Part shown: piece after piece, positions 6,086 to 62,369 of the stretch
How the letters are laid out: each line of letters opens with the position of its first letter
Position numbering within the stretch: the first letter of the stretch is position 1
Assembly: GCF_003473485.1 (NCBI RefSeq)
Contig: NC_053047.1
Span: forward strand, 29,498,972 to 29,562,971
Length of the DNA stretch: 64,000 nt
Direction of reading: 5' to 3'
From: Medicago truncatula
Lineage: Eukaryota; Streptophyta; Magnoliopsida; Fabales; Fabaceae
The notes under the pieces: generated by a model
What the model saw: the letters and a program-made list of their open reading frames with translations, nothing else
Told to the model about the DNA's origin: nothing
The model's database searches: none
Translations under genes and position numbers: made by a program

Positions 6086-6421
6086 TGAGTGAAGGAGAAA
6101 ACGAGTGATGCGTCGGTCAGAAGAGAAAGCAAGCGATCGAGAAAGCGTCTATGTAACCACCATTTTATCAATGCTTTATATGCTTTTACATGCTGCTTCT
6201 ATGCAAAGTTTAACCAATTCTATTATGTTTTTCAACTTCCTCTTTCTTTCTCTATAGTGAGCGATTTGTGAAATGAAATGAGAAGATGAAAAAACAATGA
6301 AAACGACGGTCTTTCCGACTTAAAATTTAATTTTTTAAAAATAATGCATGGGTTAGTCACATATAAAGTCATGTATAGTTCATAAATTAATTTTAAAACA
6401 AAAATAACAAAAATATTTTAT
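6086..6421. other. Intergenic, no gene recognised
   Basis: Short AT-rich spacer between the LRR pseudogene and the first tRNA gene. On the minus strand it has T-runs just past the tRNA 3' end (plus AAAAA near 6406-6410) that could stop RNA polymerase III. Confidence 0.4.
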
Positions 6422-6504
6422 TGCAGGCTGTGGGGTTCGAACCCACGCGCACTCAGTGCAGTAGGTCTTAAGTCTACCCCCTTAGACCACTCGGGCAAGC
6501 CTGC
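6422..6504 (-). tRNA. tRNA-Leu (anticodon UAA), copy 1
   Basis: The minus strand folds into a type II tRNA of 82 bases plus discriminator A. The acceptor stem GCAGGCT/AGCCTGC is perfect. The D arm is CCC...GGG with AGTGGTCTAA in the loop, and the anticodon loop is CTTAAGA with TAA in the centre. There is a long variable arm (TGCACTGAGTGCG), and the T arm GTGGG-TTCGAAC-CCCAC is perfect. A long variable arm with UAA specifies leucine. T-runs follow within 20 bases. One oddity is an A-C mismatch at the base of the anticodon stem (GTAGA/CCTAC). This copy is the outlier of five and lies 26 kb from the others. Confidence 0.9.
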
Positions 6505-6805
6505 TTGAGATGTTTGAATTATGTATAGTTTCGTACTTAACTATACATTATTGTTTTACACAAAATAGACTAAGTACACTTTTTTTTTTTAAATTTTGTG
6601 GACGTGATTAATTTTTTGTTGTCTTTTTATTAGAAAGTAGATAATAGGTTATTAAATATATTAAATATGTTTAATATAACATTTGTTTTTAAAAAAACAA
6701 AATTGTTATATCATTTATATGATATATCAAATGAAATTGTAAGTTTTTATAAATGAGAGACTTAAATGCGACCTTGATATCTTATGTTATTTTAAAAGTC
6801 CATTT

Positions 6806-7421
6806 TAGTTCCATATTTTAATTTTTTTTTTATAGACTATAATGAAAAAGTTAAATAAGAGATTAAAAAAAAACGATGTACAGAAGAAAGATGGGGCTGG
6901 GGAACGAGTACATAACAATACTATCTTATATTACTCTTGGAAAGATGTATGTGAGACTGGACACAAAACGAGCCAAATCTTCATCTTTCACAAAGGCCAC
7001 CGTATCAACGATCTATGAATGATTTGCTCATAAGTTCCTCAACGTCATCCATGACCTTCCCAAGCTGCTGCTTAAGTTCTCGGCCAATTGGTTCCAAAAA
7101 TTTCAGGTCAACTTTGATAGGCCAGACCTTAAGGCCAAGTAATTTAATGGGAGTAACTTGACCAAATATGATGCATTCAGGACCAGCTGCTTCAACTATA
7201 GCGTCATCACCCAAACCATCCCCAATAGGGTCTGGATGCCTCATGATGGAAATTGCATAATCTGAAAAGGGATTCTGAGAAACGCGAAGAATTGGAGAGT
7301 GATGAATTTTGGGTATTGGTTTTGCTGAAGAAGATGAAGCTCTCCATGGCACGTCGTTTTGAAACGAGCTCTTCGACATTTTCAATTTTTTTATTTATCT
7401 ACCTATCTTCTATCTAGTTCC
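6806..7421 (-). mobile_element. Probable processed retrocopy with 7-bp target duplication
   Basis: The direct repeat TAGTTCC occurs at 6806-6812 and 7415-7421. Between them, on the minus strand, lie a short leader, the 126-aa frame, a 3' region and a run of ten A. The array units at 31-37 kb show the uninterrupted sequence 'tagttccattattttaaaa', which works as an empty site. Confidence 0.6.
7005..7385 (-). CDS. Small conserved plant protein of unknown function, 126 aa, intronless
   Basis: A continuous frame on the minus strand starts at MKMSKSSFQN or the second Met (MSKSSFQN). It ends with ELMSKSFIDR and a stop at 7005-7007. The peptides IPKIHHSPILRVSQNPFSDY and KVWPIKVDLKFLEPIGRELK are balanced and non-repetitive, and they resemble a small conserved plant protein that I recall without a name. 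There is no clear signal peptide or membrane segment. The 5' leader to the left duplication is only about 30 bases, there is no intron, and a T10 run (minus-strand A10) lies past the 3' end. These signs suggest a retrocopy, so it may be an expressed retrogene or a still-intact processed pseudogene. I cannot assign a function. Confidence 0.6.
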   Translation of the reverse strand: MKMSKSSFQNDVPWRASSSSAKPIPKIHHSPILRVSQNPFSDYAISIMRHPDPIGDGLGDDAIVEAAGPECIIFGQVTPIKLLGLKVWPIKVDLKFLEPIGRELKQQLGKVMDDVEELMSKSFIDR

Positions 7422-7657
7422 TCCGTTATTTTAAAATTTGTCAATTTGATTCCTTAATTTATAGTAATAGTTCAATTCGATCCTTAACTTTAAAATATGT
7501 CAATTTTGGCTTCTTTTTTTTGGTTACAAAGGAAAAGGAGACCGCAAGAAAACAAACAAGAATAAAAAAGAAAAGGACCAAATCTAACAGAAGCTGAATA
7601 TTCCCTAACAAAAGCTAACTATTATATGCACACTAAGACAAATTGTTTGTACCTTAA

Positions 7658-7995
7658 GGGTGCGTTTGGTTTGCAAAACAGTAAGTACTAGACAGAGCAG
7701 TACAATGCAGAACAGCACAATACAAGGCATAATAATACAGATCAAATTTTTGTGGTATTGAATAATTTCTTGTTTTATATGATTGTTTGGGGACAACATG
7801 CTATTTTGGTGTTTTAGACAATTGTACGTGGGACAAAAAGTTGTGTTGTGGTTTGGTGAGGGACACAAATTTCAGTTTTTGTTCTGTCCCTTGCCTCCAG
7901 TTTGTTCTGTCCCTGAAACAGTTTTACAAATCAAACACTGGACTATGGAGTTGTTCTGTCTTATCCTTCATTTTTTAACAAATCAAACACACGCC
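7658..7995. mobile_element. MITE, hAT-like ends
   Basis: The left end is GGGTGCGTTTGGTTTG and the right end, read in reverse complement, is GGCGTGTGTTTGATTTG, giving imperfect terminal inverted repeats over about 17 bases. The 338-bp block is missing from every array unit at the equivalent place. No clear 8-bp target duplication is visible. The reading frames inside are chance frames. Confidence 0.7.
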
Positions 7996-8655
7996 TTTGA
8001 AGCCAACATGTTGTTATTGAATTATCTTTTTTTCTTTAGGCTAAGTCGAGCCTTTAAGTTAGACCCCTTGTTTCGGTGACGAACCATATTACAAGCCTAA
8101 AGACCTTAGAAATGTTAACCCAAATGTTATTTTGGAGTTAGGCTTGTGTAGGTGTTTGAATATGTAAAATGTTTAAGTTTGGGGTTTGCTCTTGGAACTA
8201 GCAACAATATAAGTTATGGATAGGGGTACTAGAGAACAGAGAGATCACTGTTTGTCTCAAGAGAAGTTAAAAAAAAAGACGATTTATCAAAAATACCAGC
8301 TAAAAAAATAAAATAAAATTGTTACCAGACAAAGTTACAATTTTGATCATAGTCATGTCAATCCAATTCTATAGTATCTTAAAATCATTATAGGTTGTGG
8401 GAATCTTTTTGTTTAGACCAGTAGGATTTTCCTAACTCCAAGGTGTTTATTTTAAACCTACTTTCTAGACTATCCCACCTTTAACCTAAGCCCCGTTATA
8501 ATCCAAAAAAATCCTTAAAAATGTATATTGTGTTATTGACTTTGATTGATGTTTAGAGACTTTTCAAGTTTTGGTAATATAGTAGTTTTGCATGTTGAAT
8601 GTGTGAACCTTTCAAATACTCAATTATGTTGCGACAAATTGTGGAATGGATGTGT

Positions 8656-9501
8656 TACCAAGAAAATTAGCTCATCAATTGCTAACTAAGGAGATGAACT
8701 TTTGAATGACCTTTGGTGAAGGAAGTATTATTTTACTGTTAAATTTTATTTTTAAGTTTGTTCCTTGAGAACAAGAAACGATGCAAGTTTGAGGTTGTGA
8801 TGACACAATGTCACATATGAGTTTAGTGGTTATTTTCATGTATTTTTAGTACAGTATAGATGAATTTGCATGGTCCTAAAGTTGGAAAAAGACAGAAAAA
8901 GAGGAAACAAGGAATTAGAAATCGTGCCACGATTTTGTATCATTGGGGCACATTTTTTTTGCCAAATCCAAAAGTTTCATTTGACAAAAATCGTGCCACG
9001 ATTTCCTATAATTGGGAAACGATTTTGGAGGAGCGCCGATTTGAATTTTGTGTGAAATCGGGCCACAATTTTAAGACTCGGGACACAATTTTAGTGATAT
9101 AAAATTAAAACCTATTAAAGCCACATGTGTTTTTGAGACAAGGGTTCGAAGTTTTGGAGTGAAAATGACATTTTTGGTGTTGGAGATCTGGAGAACCGAT
9201 GGGAGACCATCAAAACTCATAGCCAGTCATCCAATTTATGAAATGAATCCTCCTTTGTTACTAGTTGTTTATGCTTTAGTCATGAGTAACTAAATCCATT
9301 GTGATTAGGTCATAGATGATTATGTTCTAGCTTGTTGGCTATGTAATCTATAAGACTATAACTCTATATCAATATGATTGCAATTCTAATTTATTCAGTA
9401 AATTTATTGTCTAATGCTTTTATGATTTTGACCCAGTATAAATTGAACTTAGAGATTTTATGACCGATGACACCAATTTATAACTTAGATTTATTTATGC
9501 T
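8656..9501. other. Intergenic, degenerate repeat-like DNA
   Basis: No gene is recognised. The motif ATCGTGCCACGATTT recurs at about 8921 and 8990, with diverged forms (gggccacaattt) further on. This suggests a decayed repeat of unknown class. Confidence 0.4.
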
Positions 9502-18931: not shown

Positions 18932-19327
18932 TGGCTCAAGGACAAAAGGAAAGGTAGAGAAAATAGAGAAACTCTCTAATGTTCTCAAAGAAATTTGTTA
19001 TTATTTGAATGCTACAATGCTTGAGTATGCCTACACACTTGGTGGTGAGCCTTATTTATACTACTCTAGGAAGGCTCTCCATTACAAACTAGAAATATCT
19101 AAAAACAAGAAAAGTCTAGAGATATATGGATGTTCTAGTACATATGACTAGAAGGATCTAGAAACATTAAGATTTCCCTAGTGCTTAATTTAATTTAATT
19201 TTATTCAGTAGAGTATCTAGTAGCTTCCTTATTAGACTTCCATATTATTCTTGAGTGTTCTAGAGACTTCCACATTGTTCTTTAGTGTTTTAGAGAGTTC
19301 CATATTATTCTTCATCATTCTTTATCA
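18932..19327 (-). repeat. 3' LTR of the 2.7-kb element
   Basis: Read on the plus strand it starts tggctcaaggacaaaagg and ends cattctttatca. It is aligned throughout with 21247-21645, with scattered differences. Confidence 0.9.
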
Positions 19328-21246: not shown

Positions 21247-21645
21247 TGGCTCAGGGACAAAAGGAAAGGTAGAGAAAATAGAGAAACTCTCTAATGTTCT
21301 CAAAGAAAGTTGTTATTATTTAAATGCTTCAATGCTTGAGTATGCCTACGCACTTGGTGGTGAGCCTTATTTATACTACTCTAGGAAGACTCTCCATTAC
21401 AAACTAAAAATATCTAGAAACAAGAAAAGTCTAGAGATATGGATGTTCTAGTACATATGACTAGAAGGATCTAGAAACATTAAGATTTCCCTAGTGCTTA
21501 ATTTAATTTAATTTAATTTAATTTAGTAGAGTATCTAATAGCTTCCTTATTAGACTTCCATATTATTCTTGAATGTTCTAGAGACTTCCACATTGTTCTT
21601 TAGTGTTTTAGAGACTTCCATATTATTCTTCATCATTCTCTATCA
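21247..21645 (-). repeat. 5' LTR of the 2.7-kb element
   Basis: Read on the plus strand it starts tggctcagggacaaaagg and ends cattctctatca. It contains four TTTAA units (taatttaatttaattt) where the other LTR has fewer. Confidence 0.9.
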
Positions 21646-27929: not shown

Positions 27930-28425
27930 TTCAGCTGCTTTTATTGGTTTTGAAGACAATACCTGGACAATATGTTTTAAAGAGTTGGACTAGAGATGTG
28001 CATCCGTCTGTTGATAAGCTGAAATCTACCATCAATGTTGGCACTGAAGACACCACTCAATCACAACGATATCAACAAATTTGTGTTGTTACAGTTCAGC
28101 TTTCTACACGTTTTTGCGCAGATCCGGAGGCATCTGAAAATTTTCTCCACGGTGTTCTTGAAGCTGGGAAAAAGGCATAAGAGTTTCTTCTTTCCAAAGG
28201 TATTTTGTACCGACTCATCTTCCGTGACGCCATCTAAGTCTTCAAAAGCAGCTTCTGGCGGTGAACCATCTGCTGGGGTGAAGTCCACTGCACCAAAGTT
28301 CAAAGAAAGACCAAATCCAATTAAGTCAAAGGAGCGACTTAAAAGTGATTATGAAAAAGCTAGAGAAAGGCAGAAATTCCTTATAAATCGGAAGAAACAA
28401 AAGAGAGATGATGAGGCTTTGTACT
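27930..28425 (+). pseudogene. FAR1-related protein C-terminal fragment
   Basis: The frame reads VLKTIPGQYVLKSWTRDVHP, then TTQSQRYQQICVVTVQLSTR and FLHGVLEAGKKA with a TAA stop at 28178-28180. FAR1/FHY3 family proteins, themselves derived from MULE transposases, have 'IP..Y+L+RWT+DA' followed by 'RY..LC......A' in this place. After the stop the family-like series (EFLLSKGI) goes on in the same frame. A basic tail (KERLKSDYEKARERQKFLIN) lies in another frame up to 28425. Either an intron or a frameshift separates the two parts. Confidence 0.55.
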
Positions 28426-28499
28426 AGAGTTTATTGGTAATATTTTGATATGATCTATTTGAAATTATACATTTCATTTTCTTTGTTGTTACGTATTGA

Positions 28500-29612
28500 T
28501 GATTATAGTTTGTTTCAAAACCATTACACAATAATCTTGGTTTCACATTTAATACTATTAAAACCATTAAACCATACTTATGGTTTCAGTAATAGTCATT
28601 ATTTAAAACCATTAGACAAAGGCAGAAATTCATTTTGCAACGGAAGAAACAAAAGAGAGATGATAAGGTTTTACAAAAAAAGTGGTCACTGATTGATAAA
28701 TTCACATTTGGTAATTGTTTTAATGTTATATAAGTGTGTACTATAGTTAGTGAATAATGGTTTAAATGTTTATCACATTTGTTCTTTTGTTTTATTACAA
28801 AACCATTACACAATTATTTTGGTTTCACATTGAAGACTGTCAAAACCATTAAGCCATACTTATAGTTTTAGTAATAATTTCAGTGTATAACATCTTAATC
28901 ATTATTTAAAACCATTACAAAATTATTTTGGTTTCACATACAATACTATCAAAACCATTAAACCATACTTATGGTTTCAGTAATAATTTCAGTGTATAAT
29001 ATCAAAACCATTACACATTTATCTTGGTTTCAGATACAATACTATCAAAATCATTAAACCATACTTATGGTTTCAGTAATAATTTCAGTGTATAACATGC
29101 AAACCATTACACAATTATTTTGGTTTCACATACAATACAATCAAAACCATTAATCCATACTTATGGTTTCAGTAATAATTTCAGTGTATAACATCAAAAC
29201 CATTACACATGTATCTTGGTTTCACATACAATACTATCAAAACCATTAAACCATACTTATGGTTTCAGTAATAATTTCAGTGTATAACATGCAAATCATT
29301 ACACAATTATTTTGGTTTCACATACAATACTATCAAAATCATTAAACCATACTTATGGTTTCAGTAATAATTTCAGTGGATAACATCAAAATCATTACAC
29401 ATTTATCTTGGTTTCACATACAATACTATCAAAACCATTAAACCATAAATACTTATGGTTTCAGTAATAATTTCAGTGTATAACATCAAAACCATTACAC
29501 ATTTATCTTGGTTTCACATACAATACTATCAAAACCATTAAACCATACTTATGGTTTCAGTAATAATTTTAGTGTATAACATCAAAACCATTACAAATTA
29601 TTTTGGTTTCTT
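28500..29612. repeat. Minisatellite of about 97-bp units, roughly eight to ten copies
   Basis: Regular units run from about 28.8 to 29.61 kb, with irregular ones from 28.5 kb. Each contains aaaaccattacacatttatc, then ttggtttcacatacaatact, then aaccatacttatggtttcag, then taataatttcagtgtataac. The part aaaccata-c-ttatggttt is a small hairpin in every unit. Adjacent units differ by only a few bases. Confidence 0.92.
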
Positions 29613-30800: not shown

Positions 30801-32378
30801 TTTAGAATTTGATGAATGATGATTTCGGTGACGGTGATGATGATTTCAGTGACGGTGATGGCGATGAAGACAGCGACGGTGATGGCAATGAACACAACGA
30901 CGGTGGTTCTAACACAGTGACGACGAGCAATTGAAATGACGGTGAGCAACTGATCGGCGACGGCGAGGTTGTGAGCAACTGATCGGCGACGGTGAGTGTT
31001 TGGTTTTCGGCGACGGTGAGCGTTTGAGTTTCGTGTTCAGGTTTTTGTTTTTTACGTTATTTTCCAATTCAGAATTTTGATTATGGGCTTTTGGTTTATG
31101 TTTGGTTTGGGGGAGTGTATGACAAAATGGTTTGGGGTGTAGGAAGCAATTATGCACGGTGCATAAGGATTTTCTTATGCACCATAACCACTCTCACGTG
31201 CGTTGATGGTTCTTGTGAACAATTCATTAGCTATAAATAAATGCAATTGCATTTTTTTCTTAGTGAACAAACCGTCAAAAGTCCAGTTTAGTTCCATTAT
31301 TTTAAAATTTGTCAATTTGGTTCCTTAATTTAGAGTAATAGTTTACTTTGATCCTTAACTTTAAAACGGGTCAATTTGACCCCCTTTTCTGAGGTACAAA
31401 GGAAAAGGAGACAACAAGAAAACAAACAAGAACAAAAAAGAAAAGGAGAAAGCCTAACATAAGCTAACTTTTCTCTATCAGAAGTTAACTATTTTGTGCA
31501 CACTAAAGCAAATTGTTTATACCTCTAGCTTTTGAAGCCAACCTGTTGTTCTTGAATTATCATTTTTCTTAGGCCAAGTTGAGCATATAGGTTAGTCCCC
31601 TTGTTTCGGTGACGAACCATATTACAAGCCTAGAGACCTTAGAAATGTTAACCCAAATGTTATTTTAGAGTTAGACATTGTGTATGTGTTTGAATATGTA
31701 AAGTGTTCAAGTTTGAGGTTGCTTTCGGAACATTTTTTTTTTTTGTTACGAGACAAAGTTACAATTTTGATCATAGTCAAGTAAATTTAATTCTCTAATA
31801 CCTTAAACTCATTATAGGTTGCGAGAATCTTCTTCTTTAGACGAGTAGGATTTGCCTAACTCCATGGCGTTTCTTTTAAACCTACTTTCTAGATTATCCC
31901 ACCTTAAACCTAAAAGAGAAGTTAAAAAAAAGGCTGATTCATAAAAAATACCAGCTATTTTTTTTTTGTTGTTAAAAAAGCCGATTCATCAAAAATACTA
32001 GCTAAAAAAACAATTGTTATGAGATAGAGTTACAATTTTTATCATAACCATGTAAATGCAAATCTCTGGTAACTTAAACTCATTATAGGTTGTGAGAATC
32101 TTTTGCTTAGACCAATAGGATTTGCCTAACTCCATGGTGTTTCTTTTAAACCTAATTTCTAGATTATCATACCTTTAATCTAAGCCCTTATAAAACCCAA
32201 AAAAGTGTACACTGTGATATTGTATTTGATTGATGCTTAAGACTTTTCAAGTTTTGGTAATATGTAGTCTTGCATGTTGTGTGTGTGAACCTTTGAAATA
32301 CACAATTATATGTTGCGAGAAGTTGTGAAATGGTTGGGTTATATTATTCTTACATTGTTATAAAAATAATTTTTTGTG

Positions 32379-32461
32379 TGCAGGCTGTGGGGTTCGAACC
32401 CACGCGCACTCAGTGCAGTAGGTCTTAAGTCTACCCCCTTAGACCACTCGGGCAAGCCTGC
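32379..32461 (-). tRNA. tRNA-Leu (anticodon UAA), copy 2
   Basis: The 82-base body is identical to copy 1 (6422-6504) with discriminator A. T-runs lie within about 20 bases downstream on the minus strand, and a CAA-containing AT-rich leader lies upstream. Confidence 0.9.
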
Positions 32462-33833
32462 TCGAGTTGTTTTTGTCATCTGTAGTTCATTATTTAAAGC
32501 CATTTGTGGTTAACTATACGACATATTTTTTGTTTAAGTTATTAAGTACACATTTTCTTTTTACCCAAAATAGATTTAGATTAAGTATACAGTTTTTATA
32601 CTTTTGGGTACGTGTTTAAGTTTTTGTTGTCTTTTTATTTCAAATATGAAAATATTTATTAAATTAATTTAAAATGATTGATACAACATTTATCTTTTAA
32701 TAAACAAAATTAGTATATCATTTATACAATATACCAGGTGAAAATTGTAAGTTTTCGTAAAAGAAAAAGTGACTTAAATACTATATTAATATCTTACGTT
32801 ATTTTAAAAGTCCAGTTTAGTTCCATTATTTTAAAATTTGTCAATTTGGTTCCTTAATTTAGAGTAATAGTTTAGTTTGATCCTTAACTTTAAAACGGGT
32901 CAATTTGACCCCCTTTTCTGAGGTACAAAGGAAAAGGAGACAACAAGAAAGCAAACAAGAACAAAAAAGAAAAGGAGAAAGCCTAACATAAGCTAACTTT
33001 TCTCTATCAGAAGTTAACTATTTTGTGCACACTAAAGCAAATTGTTTATACCTCTAGCTTTTGAAGCCAACCTGTTGTTCTTGAATTATCCTTTTTCTTA
33101 GGCCAAGTTGAGCACATAGGTTAGTCCCCTTGTTTCGGTGACGAACCATATTACAAGCCTAGAGACCTTAGAAATGTTAACACAAATGTTATTTTAGAGT
33201 TAGACATTGTGTATGTTTTTGAATATGTAAAGTGTTCAAGTTTGAGGTTGCTTTCAGAACTTTTTTTTTTTGTTACGAGACAAAGTTACAATTTTGATCA
33301 TAGTCATGTAAATTTAATTCTCTAATACCTTAAACTCGTTATAAGTTGCGAGAATCTTCTTCTTTAGACGAGTAGGATTTGCCTAATTCCATGGCGTTTC
33401 TTTTAAACCTACTTTCTAGATTATCCCACCTAAAACCTAAAAGAGAAGTTATAAAAAAGGCTAAAAAAAAATTGTTATGAGATAGAGTTACAATTTTTAT
33501 CATAACCATGTAAATGCAGTTCTCTAGTAACTTAAACTCATTATAGGTTGTGAGAATCTTTTTCTTAGATCAATAGGATTTGCCTAACTCCATGGTGTTT
33601 CTTTTAAACATAATTTCTAGATTATCATACCTTTAATCTAAGCCCTGATAAAACCCAAAAAAGTGTACACTGTGATATTGTATTTGATTGATGGTTAAGA
33701 CTTTTTAAGTTTTGGTAATATGTAGTCTTGCATGTTGTGTGTGTGAACCTTTCAAATACACAATTATGTTGCGAGAAGTTGTGACATGGTTGGGTTATAT
33801 TATTCTTACATAGTTATAAAAATAATTTTTTTG

Positions 33834-33916
33834 TGCAGGCTGTGGGGTTCGAACCCACGTGCACTCAGTGCAGTAGGTCTTAAGTCTACCCCCTTAGACC
33901 ACTCGGGCAAGCCTGC
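33834..33916 (-). tRNA. tRNA-Leu (anticodon UAA), copy 3
   Basis: As copy 1 except for one change in the variable arm (GTGCG to GTGCA). This replaces a G-U with an A-U pair, so the fold is kept or improved. Confidence 0.88.
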
Positions 33917-35354
33917 TCGAGTTGTTTTTGGCATCTGTAATTCATTATTTAAAGCCATTTGTGGTTAACTATACGACATATTTTTTGTTTAAGTTATTAA
34001 GTACAGATTTTCTTTTTACCCAAAATAGACTTAGATTAAGTATACAGTTTTTATACTTTTGGGTACGTGTTTAAGTTTTTGTTGTCTTTTTATTTCAAAT
34101 ATGAAAATATTTATTAAATTAATTTAAAATGATTGATACAACATTTATCTTTTAATAAACGAAATTAGTATATCATTTATACAATATACCAGGTGAAAAT
34201 TGTAAGTTTTCGTAAAAGAAAAAGTGACTTAAATACTATATTCATATCTTACGTTATTTTAAAAGTCCAGTTTAGTTCCATTATTTTAAAATTTGTCAAT
34301 TTGGTTCCTTAATTTAGAGTAATAGTTCAGTTTGATCCTTAACTTTAAAACGGGTCAATTTGACCCCCTTTTCTGAGGTATAAAGGAAAAGGAGAGAACA
34401 AGAACACAAACAAGAACAAAAAAAAAAAGGAGAAAGCCTAACATAAGCTAACTTTTCTCTATCAGATGTTAACTATTTTGTGCACACTAAATCAAATTGT
34501 TTATACCTCTAGCTTTTGAAGCCAACCTGTTGTTCTTGAATTATCCTTTTTCTTAGGCCAAGTTGAGCATATAGGTTAGTGCACTTGTTTCGGTGACGAA
34601 CCATATTACAAGCCTAGAGACCTTAGAAATGTTAACCCAAATGTTATTTTAGAGTTAGACATTGTGTATGTGTTTGAATATGTAAAGTGTTCAAGTTTGA
34701 GGTTGCTTTCGGAACTTTTTTTTTTGTTACGAGACAAAGTTACAATTTTGATCATAGTCATGTAAATTTAATTCTCTAATACCTTAAACTCATTATAGGT
34801 TGCGAGAATCTTCTTCTTTAGACGAGTAGGATTTGCCTAACTCCATGGCGTTTCTTTTAAACCTACTTTCTAGATTATCCCACCTTAAACCTAAAAGAGA
34901 AGTTAAAAAAAAGGCTGATTCATAAAAAATACCAGCTATTTTTTTTTGTTGTTAAAAAAGCCGATTCATCAAAAATACTAGCTAAAAAAAAATTGTTATG
35001 AGATAGAGTTACAATTTTTATCATAACCATGTAAATGCAGTTCTCTAGTAACTTAAACTCATTATAGGTTGTGAGAATCTTTTGCTTAGACCAATAGGAT
35101 TTGCCTAACTCCAAGGTGTTTCTTTTAAACCTAATTTCTAGATTATCATACCTTTAATCTAAGCCTTGATAAAACCCAAAAAAGTGTACACTGTGATATT
35201 GTATTTGATTGATGCTTAAGACTTTTCAAGTTTTGGTAATATGTAGTCTTGCATGTTGTGTGTGTGAACCTTTCAAATACACAATTATGTTGCGAGAAGT
35301 TGTGAAATGGTTGGGTTATATTATTCTTACATAGTTATAAAAATAATTTTTTTG

Positions 35355-35437
35355 TGCAGGCTGTGGGGTTTGAACCCACGCGCACTCAATGCAGTAGGTC
35401 TTAAGTCTACCCCCTTAGACCACTCGGGCAAGCCTGC
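35355..35437 (-). tRNA. tRNA-Leu (anticodon UAA), copy 4
   Basis: Two changes from copy 1: the T loop is TTCAAAC instead of TTCGAAC, and the variable arm is TGCAT instead of TGCAC. Both are tolerated by the fold. Anticodon unchanged. Confidence 0.87.
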
Positions 35438-36742
35438 TCGAGTTGTTTTTGTCATTTGTAGTTCATTATTTAAAGCCATTTGTGGTTAACTATACGACAT
35501 ATTTTTTGTTTAAGTTATTAAGTACAGATTTTCTTTTTACCCAAAATAGATTTAGATTAAGTATACAGTTTTTATACTTTTGGGTATGTGTTTAAGTTTT
35601 TGTTGTCTTTTTATTTCAAATATGAAAATAGTTATTAAATTAATTAAAATGATTGATACAAAATTTATCTTTTAATAAACAAAATTAGTATATCATTTAT
35701 ACAATATACCAGGTGAAAATTGTAAGTTTTGGTAAAAGAAAAGTGACTTAAATACTATATTAATATCTTACGTTATTTTAAAAGTCCAGTTTAGTTCCAT
35801 TATTTTAAAATTTGTCAATTTGATTCCCTAATTTAGAGTAATAGTTCAGTTTGATCCTTAACTTTAAAACGGGTCAATTTGACCCCCTTTTCTGAGGTAC
35901 AAAGGAAAAGGAGACAACAAGAAAACAAACAACAAAAAAGAAAAGGAGAAAGCCTAACATAAGCTAACTTTTCTCTATCATAAGTTAACTATTTTGTGCA
36001 AACTAAAGCAAATTGTTTATACCTCTAGCTTTTGAAGCCAACCTGTTGTTCTTGAATTATCCTTTTTCTTAGGCCAAGTTGAGCATATAGGTTAGTCCCC
36101 TTGTTTCGATGACGAACCATATAACAAGCCGAGAGACCTTAGAAATGTTAACCCAAATGTTATTTTAGAGTTAGACATTGTGTATGTGTTTGAATATGTA
36201 AAGTGTTCAAGTTTGAGGTTGCTTTCGGAACTTTTTTTTTTTTTGTTACGAGACAAAGTTACAATTTTGATCATAGTCATGTAAATTTAGTTCCCTAATA
36301 CCTTAAACTCATTATAGGTTGCGAGAATCTTCTTGTTTAGACGAGTAGGATTTGCCTAACTCAATGGCGTTTCTTTTAAACCTACTTTCTAGTTTATCCC
36401 ACCTTAAACCTAAAATAGAAGTGAAAAAAAAAAAAAAAGGCTGATTCATAAAAAATACCAATTATTTTTTTTTGTTGTTAAAAAAGCCGATTCATCAAAA
36501 ATACTAGCTAAAAAGAAATTGTTATGAGATAGAGTTACAATTTTTATCATAACCATGTAAATTCAGTTCTCTAATAACTTAAACTCATTATAGGTTGTGA
36601 GAATCTTTTGCTTAGACCAATAGGATTTGCCTAACTCCATGGTGTTTCTTTTAAACCTAATTTCTAGATTATTATAGGTTGTGAGAAGTTGTGAAATGGT
36701 TGTGTTATCTTATTCTTACGTAGTTATAAATTTTTTTTTTTG

Positions 36743-36825
36743 TGCAGGCTGTGGGGTTTGAACCCACGCGCACTCAGTGCAGTAGGTCTTAAATCTACCC
36801 CCTTAGACCACTCGGGCAAGCCTGC
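36743..36825 (-). tRNA. tRNA-Leu (anticodon UAA), copy 5
   Basis: The T loop is TTCAAAC as in copy 4, and base 32 of the anticodon loop is T instead of C (TTTAAGA). The anticodon remains UAA. Stems intact apart from the A-C mismatch shared by all five. Confidence 0.87.
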
Positions 36826-37862
36826 TTGAGTTGTTTTTGTCATCTGCAGTTCATTATTTAAAGCAATTTGTGGTTAACTATACGAAATATTTTTTGTTTA
36901 AGTTATTGAGTACACATTTTCTTTTTACCCAAAATAGATTTAGATTAAGTATACAGTTTTTATACTTTTGGGTACGTGTTTAAGTTTTTGTTGTCTTTTT
37001 ATTTAAAATATGAAAATATTTATTAAATTAATTAAAAATAATTGATACAAGATTTATCTTTTAATAAACAAAATTAGTATATCATTTATACAATATACCA
37101 GATGAAAATTGTAAGTTTTCGTAAAAGAAAAAGTGACTTAAATACTATATTAATATCTTACGTTATTTTAAAAGTCCAGTTTAGTTCCATTATTTTAAAA
37201 TTTGTTAATTTAGTTCCTTAATTTAGAGTAATAGTTCAGTTTGATCCTTAACTTTAAAACGGGTCAATTTGACCCCCTTTTCTGAGGTACAAAGGAAAGG
37301 AGCCAACAAGAAAACAAACAAGAACAAAAAAGAAAAGGAGAAAGCCTAACATAAGCTAACTTTTCTCTATCAGAAGTTAACTATTTTGTGCACACTAAAG
37401 CAAATTGTTTATACCTCTAGCTTTTGAAGCCAATCTGTTGTTCTTGAATTATCCTTTTTCTTAGGCCAAGTTGAGCATATAGGTTAGTCCCCTTGTTTCG
37501 GTGACGAACCATATTACAAGCCTAGAGACCTTAGAAATGTTAACCCAAATGTTATTTTAGAGTTAGACATGGTGTATGTGTTTGAATATGTAAAGTGTTC
37601 AAGTTTGAGGTTGCTTTTGGAACTTTTTTTTTGTTACGAGACAAAGTTACAATTTTGATCATAGTCATGTAAATTTAGTTCTCTAATACCTTAAACTCAT
37701 TATAGATTGCGAGAATCTTCTTCTTTAGACGAGTAGGATTTGCCTAACTCCATGGTGTTTCTTTTAAACCTACTTTCTAGATTATCCCACCTTAAACCTA
37801 AAAGAGAAGTTAAAAAAAAAAAAGGCTGATTCAGAAAAAATACCAGCAATTTTTTTTTTGTT

Positions 37863-39446
37863 GTTAAATTAATTTCTTGCCTAAATGTTGCCTCATAAAT
37901 TTTAAGAATATTGAGTAAACTTTGTGCTTCCAGCACATTAGCCCTGCAAAACAAGAAACAATCGTCTGCAAACAACAGATGAGATACTACTGGTGCGCCG
38001 CGACATACTTGTACTCCATGAATATCGCCTCTATTAACTACCTTATGTATTAGAGTCGAGAGACCCTCGAGCACCAATATGAATAAATATGGTGATAATG
38101 GGTCACCCTGGCGCAACCCTCGACCGGGCACAATAGGCCCCATTCTATAAAAATTGATAAGCACCGAATAAGTAACAAAATTAACACACATCATCATCCA
38201 CTGAATCCATTTCTTACTGAATCCCATTTGCATAAGCACGCCACGAAGAAACCCCCAATCCACTCTATCATAAGCCTTGCTAATATCAATCTTGAGAGCC
38301 AATTCCCCTCTCCATCCCTTTGTTTTCCTCTTCATTAAGTGGATTATCTCGGTAGCTATTAACGCGTTGTCCAATATGGAGCGACCCTCGACAAACGCTG
38401 ACTGCTCCTCTGACACACATTTATCCAAACAACGTTTCAGTCGATTAGCGAGCACTTTCGACACCATCTTATACAAAACATTACAAAGAGATATAGGCCT
38501 AAGATCCTTCATATTATCCGGGCCTCCGCACTTCGGGATCAAACAAATGTTTGTTTATGTAAGGTTTAAGGGAAAGTAACCACGATCAAACCAAGAAACC
38601 GCTGCCTGAAAAATATCATCACCACACACATGCCATAATCTATGGTAAAATGCCGGGTTAAAACCATCTGGACCTGGGGACTTGTCTGGTTGCATCTGAA
38701 AAAGGGCTTGACGCAATTCTTCCTTTGTAATAGGTGAAGTAAGCATGATATTGTCATCCATCGAAACACACTGGCTCATCAAATCCAGCACCAGCTTATG
38801 GACTTCCGCATTAGCAGAAAATAATTGCTCAAAATAAACTTGTACCACGATACACATATCCTATTGCGATGTAGCCGTCCTCCCATCATCTGTGCGGAGC
38901 TTACTAACCTTCTTCACTTTGCCATGGGCTATCGCTGATGTATGAAAGAACTTAGTATTCATATCCCCTTCCTTCAACTAGTGCATTTTCACTCTTTGCT
39001 TCCAAAAGACCTCCTCCTGTACAAGTAGTCGAGCATGCTTCTCACAGGTTGCAACGTATTGCGTACGCATCATACCATTCGGCTGGGTACGGAGATCCTC
39101 TAAAATACGAATACATTGCTTAATTTCTGCCTTAAACCGAACTCTCTTCCTTCTACCCCAACTTTGCAACTTCGTAGAACAATTCACAACTCTATCTCCG
39201 AGCTCTAACCCCATATTACCACCCCAACCATCCACCACCACCTCCTCAATATCGTCCTCTAAGAGCCAACTGTTTTCCAATTTAAAAGAATGAACATACC
39301 TCTGACGAACCGTAGGGGCAATATCAAGCAATATTGGAGTGTGATCAGAGTGGGAAGTAAGCAAGTTTGTAAGTTTGACTTCTGGAAAACATTGCAGCCA
39401 TTCAGAGTTTCCCATAGCCATATCCAATCTTTCTTCTAGTGTAACT
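37863..39446 (-). pseudogene. L1-type LINE relic: endonuclease end and reverse transcriptase
   Basis: Read from 39446 downward: the endonuclease C-terminus with SDHTPILLD, a linker, a pre-RT segment (PDKSPGPDGFNPAFYHRLW), then the reverse transcriptase with LRPISLCNVLYK, KIDISKAYDRVDW, GLRQGDPLSPYLFILVLEGL and the catalytic block HLLFADDCFLF. These are hallmarks of plant L1 non-LTR elements. Frames change at about 38555-38560 and 38860-38980, the endonuclease start is missing, and the sequence stops abruptly at 37863 after the RT. RNase H and tail are lacking, so it is dead. Confidence 0.88.
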
Positions 39447-40014
39447 CCCTAGTCGTTATTTTATTTATTTATGATTTATTTAGAGTCTTTTATATGATTT
39501 TAAATAATTATTGTTGATTATGTGGTGTGTATTATTTTATTATATGGTTTATTTTAATATTAATAGAATAATGTGAGAATTATTATTATTTTGGAGGTTG
39601 GGGATTTAATTAGAAATTAATAGAATTAAGAGGGAGTTAAATGAAATAAAGGGGAGTTATGTATTGGGAGTTAGGAAAAGAAACAGTCAGAAAGCAGTTT
39701 TACGTGAAAACAAGTTTTGGGAGAAAAGGGAGAAGAGACAAGTAGAGCCAAGTGAACCAGATTTTTGTGCATTTGTTCGTCTGAATTAAGGTAAGGGTGA
39801 GGTTTGCTTCAGTAGTGTAGATGTTTAATTCTGATTTTGATTTAACAGGTTTATGGTAGAAATTAGGGATTTTGGGTTTAAGTTGAATTCTGGTTTTTTT
39901 GGGTGAATTGAGTGTAGGAATCACTGGTTTGATGTTAGAAATAGGTTCTGAGTGCATACAGCATTTCATTTCATATCTGTAAACTGAGTTGGGGAGTGAA
40001 ATTGAAAAAATTGG
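39447..40014 (+). mobile_element. LTR-like fragment, class uncertain
   Basis: It begins tgtaactccctagtcgttat and has purine-rich GGGAGTTA stretches and a leader-like part (gggagaaaagggagaagaga), as in some Ty3/gypsy LTRs. No second copy or internal domain is present. It could equally be promoter or leader of an unknown gene. Confidence 0.3.
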
Positions 40015-40116
40015 GAGACAACAAGAAAACAAGAAAACAAACAAGAACAAAAAAGAAAAGGAGAAAGCCTAACATAAGCTAACTTTTCTTAATTTAGAGT
40101 AATAGTTCAGTTTAGA
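40015..40116. repeat. Displaced piece of the tRNA-array unit
   Basis: The sequence gagacaacaagaaaacaa... to ...agcctaacataagctaactt matches the unit (for example 31411-31475). It is followed directly by taatttagagtaatagttca, which in the intact unit lies before it. Two parts are therefore joined in swapped order. Confidence 0.8.
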
Positions 40117-47261: not shown

Positions 47262-47412
47262 TACACCCTCCAGTCATTAATATAAGTAAAAAATTACATT
47301 TTAGGTTCATTCATTTAATGATGTATGTGATCTATAATAAAGACCATGTGCATCATTAAATGAATGAATCGAAAATGTAATTTTTTGCTTATATTAGTGA
47401 CTGGAGGGTGTA
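47262..47412. mobile_element. Stowaway-like MITE, 151 bp
   Basis: TACACCCTCCAGTCA...TGACTGGAGGGTGTA (47262-47412) with TA at both ends. The two arms pair over about 60 bases almost perfectly (for example ttcattcatttaatgatg with catcattaaatgaatgaa). Confidence 0.85.
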
Positions 47413-58819: not shown

Positions 58820-59117
58820 GGGCTTCATTTGTTTATCTTGTTGAAATTTCAAAGTCTTCCTTTTGAAAATACTATGTAGTTTTGATTATTTGCAAGATTT
58901 CTAATTTGTTTAAAAATCCTTCGATGAAAAAAGAAGTCTTTTGCATTTGCATTTGCATATCATGCATCATATGCATCATGCATTGGTCACAAAGGCTTCC
59001 AAGTGCTCACTACCTCCTGGTTCCTCTGCCACAGTTTGAAAAGTGGCTCGTGCTCAGAAGGTCTACGAACCTGACAGAATCGATCGAACCAGAGAATACA
59101 GAAGAAGGAAAAAGGCT

Positions 59118-62100
59118 ATGGAAGAAGAGAACGCTCAGCTCCGTACCGAGTTAGCCACTCTAAGGGAGGAATTGGCTAAAGCTAATGATGTCATGACTGC
59201 TCTGCTAGCCGCTCAAGAACAATCAGCTACGGCTATCCCTATAGCCACAGCTGTACCGGTGACTACAAGCGTGCTCCCAACCGCATCTGCAGACGCTTGC
59301 TTTGCTATGCCAGCTGGGTTTCCGTATGGGCTTCCACCGTTCTTCACTCCCAGTACTGCAGCGGGCACTTCTGGCACTGCTAATAATGTTCTGATCCCTG
59401 CAACAAATGCTGCCTCCATCAATGCTACTTTGCCACAAACAACAGCAGCTGTCACTGAGCCTCTTGTGCATACCATGCCTCAAAGTGTTAACATCAACAC
59501 ACAGCACGGAAGCATCCCCGTAACCAAAACCATGGAAGAGATGATGGAGGAACTTGCTAAAGAACTCCGTCATGAGATCAAAGCCAATCGAGGGAATGCG
59601 GACTCTTTCAAAACTCAAGATCTCTGCTTGGTGTCAAAAGTGGATGTCCCTAAGAAGTTCAAAATCCCAGATTTCGACCGGTACAACGGGCTAACTTGTC
59701 CCCAAAACCACATCATCAAATACGTCCGAAAGATGGGCAATTACAAAGACAATGATTCCCTTATGATCCACTGCTTCCAGGATAGTTTGATGGAAGATGC
59801 TGCAGAGTGGTATACTAGTTTGAGCAAAAATGACATCCATACCTTTGATGAATTAGCCGCTGCTTTCAAGAGCCACTATGGGTTTAACACCCGATTGAAG
59901 CCGAACAGGGAATTCCTCAGATCTCTCTCCCAGAAGAAGGAGGAAAGCTTCCGTGAATACGCACAGAGATGGAGGGGGGCAGTTGCCCGTATTACTCCCG
60001 CTCTTGATGAAGAAGAAATGACCCAGACATTCTTAAAGACCTTGAAGAAGGATTATGTTGAGAGAATGATCATTGCTGCCCCGAATAACTTCTCGGAGAT
60101 GGTCACCATGGGAACCCGTCTGGAAGAAGCCGTCAGGGATGGAATCATTGTGTTCGAGAAAGCTGAATCCTCTGTGAATGCATCAAAGAGGTATGGCAAT
60201 GGACACCACAAGAAGAAAGAAACGGAAGTAGGGATGGTGTCAGCTGGAGCCGGTCAATCCATGGCTACTGTTGCTCCTATCAATGCAGCCCAAATGCCTC
60301 CGTCATACCCATATGTGCCGTATTCTCAGCATCCTTTCTTTCCGCCATTTTATCATCAGTACCCTCTGCCACCGGGTCAACCTCAAGTACCCGTTAATGC
60401 AATCGTTCAACAGATGAAACAACAGTTGCCAGTTCAACAACAACAACAAAATCAGCAAGCTAGACCTACTTTCCCTCCGATACCGATGTTATATGCTGAG
60501 TTGCTTCCGACTTTACTCCATAGAGGGCATTGTACAACCAGACAGGGCAAGCCCCCACCTGATCCGTTGCCTCCAAGGTTCAGGTCCGATCTCAAATGTG
60601 ATTTTCATCAAGGCGCCCTAGGTCATGATGTCGAGGGGTGCTATGCTTTGAAGTATATCGTGAAGAAGCTCATTGATCAAGGAAAGCTGACTTTTGAGAA
60701 TAATGTCCCACACGTCCTCGACAATCCTCTTCCAAATCATGCCGCTGTGAATATGATCGAAGTATGTGAGGAAGCTCCTAGACTTGATGTCCGTAATGTC
60801 GCAACTCCTCTGGTGCCTCTACACATCAAGTTGTGCAAAGCTTCTCTGTTCAGCCATGATCATGCCAAGTGCCTAGGATGCCTTCGTAATCCTTTGGGTT
60901 GCTATACTGTTCAAGACGACATCCAAAGCTTGATGAATGAAAATTTTTTGACTGTTAGTGACGTCTGCGTGATTGTGCCAGTTTTTCACGATCCGCCTAT
61001 CAAGAGTTTACCTTTGAAGAAGAGTGCTGAGCCTTTGGTGATAAGGTTGCCCGGACCGGTACCGTATACTTCAGATAGGGCTATCCCGTACAAATATAAT
61101 GCTACCATAATCGAAAACGGAGTAGAAGTGCCTCTGGTGTCCTTGGCTGTGATGAACAATACCGCCGAAGGAACTTCAGCAGCCCTTAGGAGCGGAAGAG
61201 TCCGTCCACCGTTGTTTCAAAAGAAGGCAGCTACGCCTACCGTGCCACCCATTGACAAGCCAACCCCGACTGATGTTTCTCCCGTTAACAGAGACGCGAG
61301 CCAACCAAGCCGGTCTATAGAGGATTCTAATCTGGACGAGATTTTGAGGTTGATCAAAAGAAGTGATTATAAGATTGTGGATCAGCTGTTGCAAACTCCG
61401 TCGAAGATATCCATTTTGTCTTTACTCCTGAGTTCCGCTGCTCACAGAGATACCCTTTTGAAAGTATTGGAGCAGGCTTATGTGGATCATGAAGTAACTG
61501 TGGATCACTTTGGTAGCATAGTGGGAAACATTACCGCCTGCAGCAATCTGTGGTTCAATGAAGATGAATTGCCTGAAGCAGGAAAGCATCATAATCTGGC
61601 CTTGCATATCTCCGTGAATTGCAAGTCTGACATGATCTCAAATGTGTTAGTAGACACTGGCTCGTCTTTGAACGTGATGCCCAAGTCAACGCTGGATCAG
61701 CTGAGTTACCGGGGAACTCCCTTGAGGAGGAGCACTTTTCTGGTCAAAGCCTTTGATGGAACCCGCAAGAGCGTTCTCGGGGAGATAGACTTGCCAATAA
61801 CTATTGGCCCCGAAACCTTTCTAATCACGTTTCAGGTCATGGATATTAATGCCTCTTACAGCTGTCTCTTGGGGAGACCATGGATACATGACGCGGGGGC
61901 GGTGACCTCTACCTTGCATCAGAAGTTGAAATTTGCAAAAAGTGGAAAGCTTGTTACCATTCATGGAGAGGAGGCATACCTGGTTAGCCAGCTATCATCT
62001 TTCTCTTGCATAGAAGCAGGGTCTGCAGAGGGGACCGCTTTTCAAGGATTAACTGTCGAAGGTACGGAGCCCAAGAGGGATGGAACTGCAATGGCTTCTT

Positions 62101-62369
62101 TGAAGGATGCACAGAGAGCCGTCCAAGAGGGTCAAGCTGCCGGCTGGGGCAAGTTAATACAGCTTCGTGAGAACAAGCATAAGGAAGGTCTTGGCTTTTC
62201 CCCAACTTCAGGAGTTTCCACCGGGGCATTCTATAGTGCTGGGTTTGTCAACGCAATCACAGAAGAAGCAACTGGATTTGGCCCGAGGCCTGTTTTTGTT
62301 ATACCAGGAGGCATTGCGAGAGATTGGGATGCCATTGACATTCCCTCAATCATGCATGTTTCTGAGTAA
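59118..62369 (+). CDS. Ogre ORF2: gag, aspartic protease and G-patch, about 1083 aa
   Basis: The frame is open from 59040 (TGA at 59037-59039). The first ATG is at 59118, so the start is uncertain. In order: an N-terminal coiled coil (MEEENAQLRTELATLREELA), an Ala/Thr-rich stretch, and the capsid-type gag domain (about 185-320; FDRYNGLTCPQNHIIKYVRK, DAAEWYTSL). A Pro/Gln-rich linker and a zinc-knuckle-like CDFHQGALGHDVEGC (about 493-507) follow. Next comes the retropepsin with VLVDTGSSLNVMP (catalytic Asp about 846) and LGRPWIHDAGAV. Near the C-terminus is a G-patch (AAGWGKLIQL...EGLGFSP, about 1005-1030). Gag forms the particle and the protease matures the polyprotein. It is intact and ends with TAA at 62367-62369. 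Confidence 0.9.
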   Translation: MEEENAQLRTELATLREELAKANDVMTALLAAQEQSATAIPIATAVPVTTSVLPTASADACFAMPAGFPYGLPPFFTPSTAAGTSGTANNVLIPATNAASINATLPQTTAAVTEPLVHTMPQSVNINTQHGSIPVTKTMEEMMEELAKELRHEIKANRGNADSFKTQDLCLVSKVDVPKKFKIPDFDRYNGLTCPQNHIIKYVRKMGNYKDNDSLMIHCFQDSLMEDAAEWYTSLSKNDIHTFDELAAAFKSHYGFNTRLKPNREFLRSLSQKKEESFREYAQRWRGAVARITPALDEEEMTQTFLKTLKKDYVERMIIAAPNNFSEMVTMGTRLEEAVRDGIIVFEKAESSVNASKRYGNGHHKKKETEVGMVSAGAGQSMATVAPINAAQMPPSYPYVPYSQHPFFPPFYHQYPLPPGQPQVPVNAIVQQMKQQLPVQQQQQNQQARPTFPPIPMLYAELLPTLLHRGHCTTRQGKPPPDPLPPRFRSDLKCDFHQGALGHDVEGCYALKYIVKKLIDQGKLTFENNVPHVLDNPLPNHAAVNMIEVCEEAPRLDVRNVATPLVPLHIKLCKASLFSHDHAKCLGCLRNPLGCYTVQDDIQSLMNENFLTVSDVCVIVPVFHDPPIKSLPLKKSAEPLVIRLPGPVPYTSDRAIPYKYNATIIENGVEVPLVSLAVMNNTAEGTSAALRSGRVRPPLFQKKAATPTVPPIDKPTPTDVSPVNRDASQPSRSIEDSNLDEILRLIKRSDYKIVDQLLQTPSKISILSLLLSSAAHRDTLLKVLEQAYVDHEVTVDHFGSIVGNITACSNLWFNEDELPEAGKHHNLALHISVNCKSDMISNVLVDTGSSLNVMPKSTLDQLSYRGTPLRRSTFLVKAFDGTRKSVLGEIDLPITIGPETFLITFQVMDINASYSCLLGRPWIHDAGAVTSTLHQKLKFAKSGKLVTIHGEEAYLVSQLSSFSCIEAGSAEGTAFQGLTVEGTEPKRDGTAMASLKDAQRAVQEGQAAGWGKLIQLRENKHKEGLGFSPTSGVSTGAFYSAGFVNAITEEATGFGPRPVFVIPGGIARDWDAIDIPSIMHVSE

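What the first reader, a model, noticed from the sequence alone, without database searches (positions are those of the whole stretch)
31276..37862. Recent tandem amplification of a 1.4-1.5 kb unit bearing tRNA-Leu(UAA)
Four near-identical units each carry a tRNA-Leu(UAA) gene in the same orientation, and a fifth, older copy of both gene and spacer lies at 6.4-8.7 kb. Spacer similarity shows that the whole segment was duplicated, not just the tRNA. The array units share an internal 200-bp duplication absent from the proximal copy, so the founder unit changed before it was amplified. This is local tRNA dosage expansion by unequal exchange, or part of a larger array.
Basis: seen in the sequence. 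Interest (0 to 1): 0.7.

Follow-up and report, generated by a model that had tools for sequence, protein, structure and literature searches.

The report
Small tandem array of leucine-tRNA genes
A stretch of plant chromosome carries four recently copied leucine-tRNA genes in a row, not far from an older single copy; the array is real, but it is an ordinary example of how plant tRNA genes multiply and may then start to decay.

Summary
The window, very probably Medicago truncatula, has five tRNA-Leu(UAA) genes on the minus strand. Four sit in a head-to-tail array, 31277-37868 (spacing 1388-1521 bp, units 96.0-98.2% identical); the fifth lies in a diverged copy at 6404-8657 (83-87%). The proposed history is mostly supported. 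Over half of the "spacer" is a fragment of a dispersed repeat. In 6 of 7 fetched repeat copies homology to the proximal locus runs on past the unit boundary, and the internally duplicated segment occurs once. So the proximal layout is ancestral, the tandem joint (repeat interior fused to the tRNA 3' flank) is derived, and the internal duplication preceded amplification. "Dosage expansion" is untested. Sequence leans to redundancy: tRNAs vary like spacer inside the array, one copy lost its near terminator, and C-to-T changes are enriched at CG/CHG sites. The "A57 variant" is not array-specific: 6 of 8 dispersed tRNA-Leu(UAA) loci seen carry it. No continuation was found within about 110 kb on either side. 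Known kind: plant tDNA tandem cluster, as in Arabidopsis tRNA-Cys and Ser-Tyr-Tyr clusters.

The parts
6422..6504 (-). tRNA-Leu(UAA), proximal single copy, G-type T-loop; identical to array gene A1
6404..8657 (.). Proximal, older unit copy; homology to the array begins about at the tRNA 3' end and stops at 8657, while homology to the dispersed repeat family continues to 8813-8849
6822..7421 (-). Insertion in proximal unit: open frame of 129 aa (7005-7394), T10 at the low end and a diverged flanking duplication; looks like a retrocopy (inference; parent not found)
7655..7992 (.). Insertion in proximal unit whose ends look complementary; MITE-like (label recalled)
8319..8489 (.). Single copy of the segment that is duplicated inside the array units
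31277..32340 (.). Left partial unit A0 (no tRNA of its own)
32341..33797 (.). Unit A1 (tRNA 3' flank, tRNA, 5' flank, repeat-derived spacer)
32379..32461 (-). tRNA-Leu(UAA) A1: A box, B box, CAA at -8, T5 at +13
33798..35318 (.). Unit A2
33834..33916 (-). tRNA-Leu(UAA) A2: one private substitution next to the variable arm; T5 at +12
35319..36690 (.). Unit A3, with a deletion of about 140 bp near its right end
35355..35437 (-). tRNA-Leu(UAA) A3: A-type T-loop plus one private variable-arm substitution; T5 at +12
36691..37868 (.). Unit A4, truncated on the right at the junction with a reverse-transcriptase element fragment
36743..36825 (-). tRNA-Leu(UAA) A4: A-type T-loop, one private anticodon-loop substitution; first run of four or more T downstream is at +229
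31743..31913 (.). Internal duplication, first copy (d1), leftmost unit
32014..32183 (.). Internal duplication, second copy (d2), leftmost unit
33019..33797 (.). Dispersed-repeat-derived part of the spacer (shown for unit A1), 779 of 1457 bp including the internal duplication
37869..40023 (-). Stretch with a reverse-transcriptase domain (RVT_1) abutting the array; the RT open frame ends near the junction
40024..40113 (+). Two array-derived snippets in scrambled order (unit offsets 132-197, then 47-72) beyond that element

Best explanation
This is a small nuclear tDNA tandem array of a known kind. Steps: (1) shown by outgroup: the ancestral layout is like the proximal copy, one tRNA-Leu(UAA) gene with a fragment of a dispersed repeat about 1 kb upstream of it. 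(2) Shown: in the array the repeat is broken at the point equivalent to 8657 and fused to the tRNA 3' flank, so the unit arose by a duplication with breakpoints near the tRNA 3' end and inside the repeat. (3) Shown in order, inferred in cause: a segment of about 171 bp was duplicated inside the founder, and the unit was later multiplied head-to-tail, most likely by unequal exchange with some gene conversion. (4) Shown: both edges are cut; on the right the array meets a reverse-transcriptase element fragment followed by scrambled unit pieces, as after faulty break repair (cause inferred). (5) Inferred: A1-A3 could still be transcribed by RNA polymerase III, but the copies are redundant, have probably lain in methylated chromatin, and are drifting; A4 is probably defective in termination.
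For: Five tRNA-Leu(TAA) genes and colinear units. Tree of units star-like, 0 of 3 inner branches supported. Whole-genome search (40 of 179 first-look candidates scored, so a lower bound): matches covering most of a unit only in this window; sub-blocks in a dispersed family. Seven of 30 such places fetched: 0 of 7 stretches of 2.7 kb holds a tRNA; 6 of 7 are colinear with proximal 7993 to 8813-8849, across the unit boundary at 8657, the seventh (L035) matching in pieces; both internal-duplication copies map to one and the same interval in 6 of 7, L035 not covering it. Proximal and array 3' flanks are not alike beyond chance (115 of 500 shuffles reach the score), the 5' flanks are (0 of 500). 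tRNA differs from the proximal gene at 0-2 of 83 sites against 17-18% in spacer. Inside the array tRNA varies like spacer (4 of 83 against 77 of 1228 sites, p 0.81). C>T on either strand at CG+CHG 15 per 339 cells against CHH 18 per 1679, p 1.4e-4; transversions at the same sites show no bias (4 per 339 against 22 per 1679, p 1.0).
Against: No reads, expression, methylation or other-accession data. The tRNA comparison inside the array has little power (83 sites), and private substitutions in 3 of 4 array genes against 1 of 9 others is only p 0.052. The C>T bias has no unmethylated control locus, and transitions do not outnumber transversions overall (43 against 52 single-unit changes), which strong deamination would lead one to expect. 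A1-A3 keep A box, B box, CAA and T-run, so they may be active. The flanks are AT-rich and the flank test is weak: the 3' flank of dispersed locus L044 beats nearly all shuffles against the proximal flank (2 of 200 reach it) and all against the array flank (0 of 200). Unequal exchange is not separable here from replication-based amplification. d1, d2 and the proximal segment are nearly equidistant.
Confidence: 0.82

Rival explanations
1. Selected dosage expansion: the array supplies extra tRNA-Leu(UAA), possibly in particular cells, as reported for the Arabidopsis Ser-Tyr-Tyr cluster.
For: 5 of the 13 tRNA-Leu(UAA) loci seen in this genome lie in this window (13 is a lower bound). A1-A3 have intact promoter boxes, CAA motif and T-run. 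A1 is identical to two of the 8 dispersed genes seen. PMC12308677 (passages, section 7) reports cell-specific use of an otherwise silent cluster.
Against: Within the array tRNAs are no more conserved than spacer; 3 of 4 array genes carry private substitutions against 1 of 9 other loci (p 0.052); A4 has no run of four T until +229.
Confidence: 0.12
2. The unit is itself a mobile element that carries a tRNA gene, and the array is a run of insertions.
For: More than half of the unit belongs to a dispersed repeat family; the Arabidopsis tRNA-Cys cluster overlaps annotated Helitrons (PMC10701932).
Against: 0 of 7 fetched family stretches hold a tRNA; matches covering most of a unit occur only in this window (lower bound); the array joint lies in the interior of the repeat; the inverted-repeat search of one unit showed no pair at its ends.
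Confidence: 0.03
3. The proximal copy is derived from the array by excision and reinsertion of one unit.
For: The proximal copy spans one unit, opened at another point.
Against: Homology of the proximal locus to the dispersed family runs on past the unit boundary, from 8657 to 8813-8849, which a reinserted unit would not have; its single 171-bp segment is the outgroup state.
Confidence: 0.02
4. Assembly artefact.
For: Reads could not be inspected.
Against: Units differ by 1.8-4.6%, with private indels and distinct edges.
Confidence: 0.02

Closest known systems
Arabidopsis thaliana tRNA-Cys(GCA) cluster, chromosome 5 (PMC10701932; outline with abstract, Results part 1 of 2 and Discussion seen)
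   Same: Four tandem units, each with one tRNA gene of one isoacceptor plus spacer; whole-unit repeats; a related copy near the array; overlap with transposon-annotated sequence; substitutions private to copies
   Different: Units of about 0.42 kb at 84-94% identity there, 1.4-1.5 kb at 96-98% here; annotated as Helitron there, an unnamed dispersed repeat here; the related copy is an adjoining pseudogene there and an intact gene about 25 kb away here; unit number is known to vary among accessions there, untested here
Arabidopsis Ser-Tyr-Tyr (SYY) cluster (PMC12308677; passages and section 7 seen)
   Same: Tandem expansion of tDNA units with variant and decaying copies; methylated and mostly silent there, a methylation-like mutation bias here
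   Different: Dozens of genes of two isotypes there; expression data exist there, none here
Angiosperm tDNA cluster survey (PMC11700998; passages seen)
   Same: Reports tRNA-Pro, Tyr-Ser and Ile clusters in eudicot or monocot genomes
   Different: Its criterion of at least three tDNAs within 1 kb cannot register this array, whose genes are 1.4-1.5 kb apart
Human 1q23.3 tRNA tandem repeat (PMC4041453; outline with abstract and passages seen)
   Same: Large repeat units containing tRNA genes, the rest of the unit free to diverge
   Different: 7.3-kb CTCF-binding units with several tRNA genes each, 9-43 copies

Membership tests
Plant nuclear tDNA tandem cluster | Three or more tRNA genes of the same isoacceptor(s) in head-to-tail order | tested here: met
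Plant nuclear tDNA tandem cluster | Gene and spacer repeat together as a unit | tested here: met
Plant nuclear tDNA tandem cluster | Pol III signals (A box, B box, CAA, T-run) | tested here: met
   met by A1-A3 (3 of 4); A4 lacks the near T-run
tDNA cluster by the survey definition of PMC11700998 | At least three tDNAs within 1 kb | tested here: not met
   spacing 1388-1521 bp
Plant nuclear tDNA tandem cluster | Copy number variation between accessions | not testable with these tools
   no other accession held
Silenced tDNA cluster (Arabidopsis type) | DNA methylation and transcriptional silencing | tested here: inconclusive
   only indirect: C>T bias at CG/CHG, overall transitions not in excess; no methylome or RNA data
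tRNA-carrying transposable element | Dispersed copies containing both tRNA and repeat | tested here: not met
   (lower bound): matches covering most of a unit only in the window; 0 of 7 fetched repeat stretches hold a tRNA

The most novel reading that the evidence does not exclude
The array is a conditionally used tRNA-Leu(UAA) reserve: a tDNA cluster embedded in repeat-derived, methylated DNA and switched on in particular cells (for example where repeats change methylation state), with private bases that give traceable isodecoders.
Probability: 0.08. Interest if true: 0.5.

Novelty: new member of a known kind. Interest (0 to 1): 0.27.

Why it matters
It is a young, small, fully readable tDNA array in which the order of events can be polarised: the joint near the tRNA 3' end, the internal duplication, the amplification and the edge breakage. 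Its spacing escapes one published density-based cluster definition (PMC11700998), so surveys of that type would miss arrays like this. The private bases of A2-A4 would let tRNA sequencing ask directly whether these copies are used.

Tried and rejected
Larger array: the window was extended by 22 loci, 219,991 bases of which 91 overlap the window; ARAGORN found 0 tRNA genes and BLAST at 1e-4 found 0 matches to the array or proximal unit. Introns could hide a tRNA from ARAGORN. Tandem Repeats Finder does not report the array because its longest period is 500. Unit tree: no inner branch supported, so no order of duplication among units is claimed. Higher-order repeat of two units: rejected, since U1-U3 are alike (98.2%) but U2-U4 are the least alike (95.4%). 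T-loop A57 as a sign of decay: rejected, since 6 of 8 other loci have it. The 171-bp copies alone did not fix the polarity (d1, d2 and proximal nearly equidistant); the repeat family did. Minimum-energy folds of the tRNAs fell into two shapes, one for proximal, A1 and A3 and another for A2 and A4; I draw nothing from that. The listings of my literature searches named no tRNA-Leu tandem array in Medicago; this covers only the open-licence library, those terms and the rows shown. PMC8862580 (Medicago A17 against R108; passages only) showed nothing on it. One paper was not held.
Full report
What was checked. ARAGORN reports five tRNA genes in the window, all tRNA-Leu(TAA) on the minus strand, and Rfam agrees. 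Self-comparison of the window shows head-to-tail copies from 31277 to 37868 and a diverged copy at 6404-8657. The window is G000:C6:29498972-29562971 in a genome of 429,922,655 bases in 42 contigs. Two microRNA families match, MIR2680 and MIR2593, which I recall as Medicago families, so I take the plant to be Medicago truncatula; this is inference.

Anatomy. In the register that starts at the tRNA 3' end the array consists of a left partial unit without tRNA (31277-32340) and units A1 32341-33797, A2 33798-35318, A3 35319-36690 and A4 36691-37868, the last cut on the right. Pairwise identity is 96.0-98.2% within the array and 83.4-86.8% to the proximal copy. Every unit that reaches that far has a core of about 171 bp twice at a step of about 270 bp, the two copies differing by 11-16.5%, while the proximal copy has it once (step measured in the leftmost unit). 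The proximal copy is interrupted by two insertions, 6822-7421 and 7655-7992.

What the spacer is. A search of the whole genome with one unit found matches covering most of it only in this window (40 of 179 first-look candidates scored, so counts are lower bounds). Part of the spacer, window 33019-33797, matches 29 other places in its first block and one more place only in its second block, at 68-82% identity, on all eight large contigs. I fetched 7 of these 30 places. They belong to a dispersed repeat family, alike over up to 2.7 kb, at 67-98% over the aligned pieces, and the fetched 2.7-kb stretches hold no tRNA (0 of 7). Two of its open frames matched no Pfam family, so the family is left unnamed.

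Order of events. The family works as an outgroup. In 6 of 7 copies the homology to the proximal locus runs colinearly from 7993 to 8813-8849, past 8657, where homology between proximal copy and array stops; the seventh (L035) matches in pieces. So the proximal layout is ancestral and the array joint, repeat interior fused to the tRNA 3' flank, is derived. In the same 6 copies both internal-duplication copies of the array map to one and the same interval, over the full core in L032 and over 58-79 bp in the other five; L035 does not cover it. So the single state is ancestral. All array units that reach that far share the duplication, so it preceded the amplification. The 3' flanks of the proximal and array genes are not alike beyond chance (115 of 500 shuffles reach the score), whereas the 5' flanks are (0 of 500); this test is weak on AT-rich DNA, as the 3' flank of the dispersed locus L044 scores high against both (2 and 0 of 200). 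A tree of units is star-like without support. With recalled substitution rates of 6.5e-9 to 1e-8 per site and year, the units split about 1-3 million years ago and array and proximal copy about 7-15 million years ago (distances); gene conversion would make these too young.

Edges. On the right, unit A4 ends at 37868 against a stretch with a reverse-transcriptase domain (RVT_1, E 1.2e-31), whose open frame ends near the junction. Beyond it, at 40024-40113, lie two pieces of the unit in scrambled order (offsets 132-197, then 47-72). This looks like break repair with filler DNA (inference). The left edge at 31277 lies inside a unit. No unit match and no tRNA gene was found in 219,991 fetched bases around the window, 91 of which overlap it.

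Are the genes functional? A1, A2 and A3 have A box, B box, an upstream CAA at -8 and a T5 run at +12 or +13; A4's first run of four or more T is at +229. Against the proximal gene the tRNAs differ at 0-2 of 83 sites and the spacer at 17-18%, so the gene was under constraint, or was converted, over the long term. Within the array 4 of 83 tRNA sites vary against 77 of 1228 spacer sites (p 0.81): no constraint is visible, with little power. The 8 other places with tRNA matches were fetched and all 8 are called tRNA-Leu(TAA). At least 13 loci are thus known, 5 of them in this window; the dedicated census request did not complete.

Mutation footprint. Polarised by the majority base, C>T changes on either strand number 15 per 339 CG or CHG cells against 18 per 1679 CHH cells (odds ratio 4.1, p 1.4e-4), while transversions number 4 against 22 (p 1.0). 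Columns with fewer than three units were left out, and tied columns gave no change. This is what cytosine methylation would leave behind. Against it: no unmethylated control, cells are not independent, and transitions do not outnumber transversions overall (43 against 52 single-unit changes).

Comparison with the known. [quoted passage not shown]). The SYY cluster is silenced in most tissues and active in root cap cells (PMC12308677, passages and section 7). The survey of angiosperms reports tRNA-Pro, Tyr-Ser and Ile clusters under a definition of three tDNAs within 1 kb (PMC11700998, passages), which would not register genes 1.4-1.5 kb apart. A human tRNA tandem repeat is also on record (PMC4041453, outline with abstract, and passages). 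The present array is a new member of this kind.

Verdict. Interest is modest.

Noticed in passing
window 6822-7421: Insertion in the proximal unit with a 129-aa open frame on the minus strand, a T10 run at its low end and a diverged flanking duplication; looks like a retrocopy. No Pfam match; the genome search for its parent did not complete.
   Followed up: partly
window 40024-40113: Two snippets of the tRNA array in scrambled order, separated from the array by a reverse-transcriptase element fragment.
   Followed up: yes
L038 and L039 (G000:C3:55497680-55498180 and 55500810-55501330): Two tRNA-Leu(UAA) genes about 3.1 kb apart in the same orientation; L038 has a second copy of the tRNA 3' end just downstream. 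The L039 3' flank resembles the proximal gene's 3' flank (0 of 200 shuffles reach the score).
   Followed up: partly
G000:C8:19327044-19334062: Three copies of the dispersed repeat blocks at exact 3160-bp steps with identical scores: perhaps another tandem array involving this repeat family.
   Followed up: no
window 28340-29610: Minisatellite-like direct repeats, mostly about 82-94% alike.
   Followed up: no
window 18932-19327 and 21247-21645: Direct repeat pair of about 400 bp at 95% identity, 2.3 kb apart, like the LTRs of a short element.
   Followed up: no
window 47280-47394 and 62800-62967: Rfam matches to MIR2593 (both strands) and MIR2680; the second lies just beyond a frame with a retrotransposon gag domain (59040-62369), so it may be repeat-derived.
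   Followed up: no
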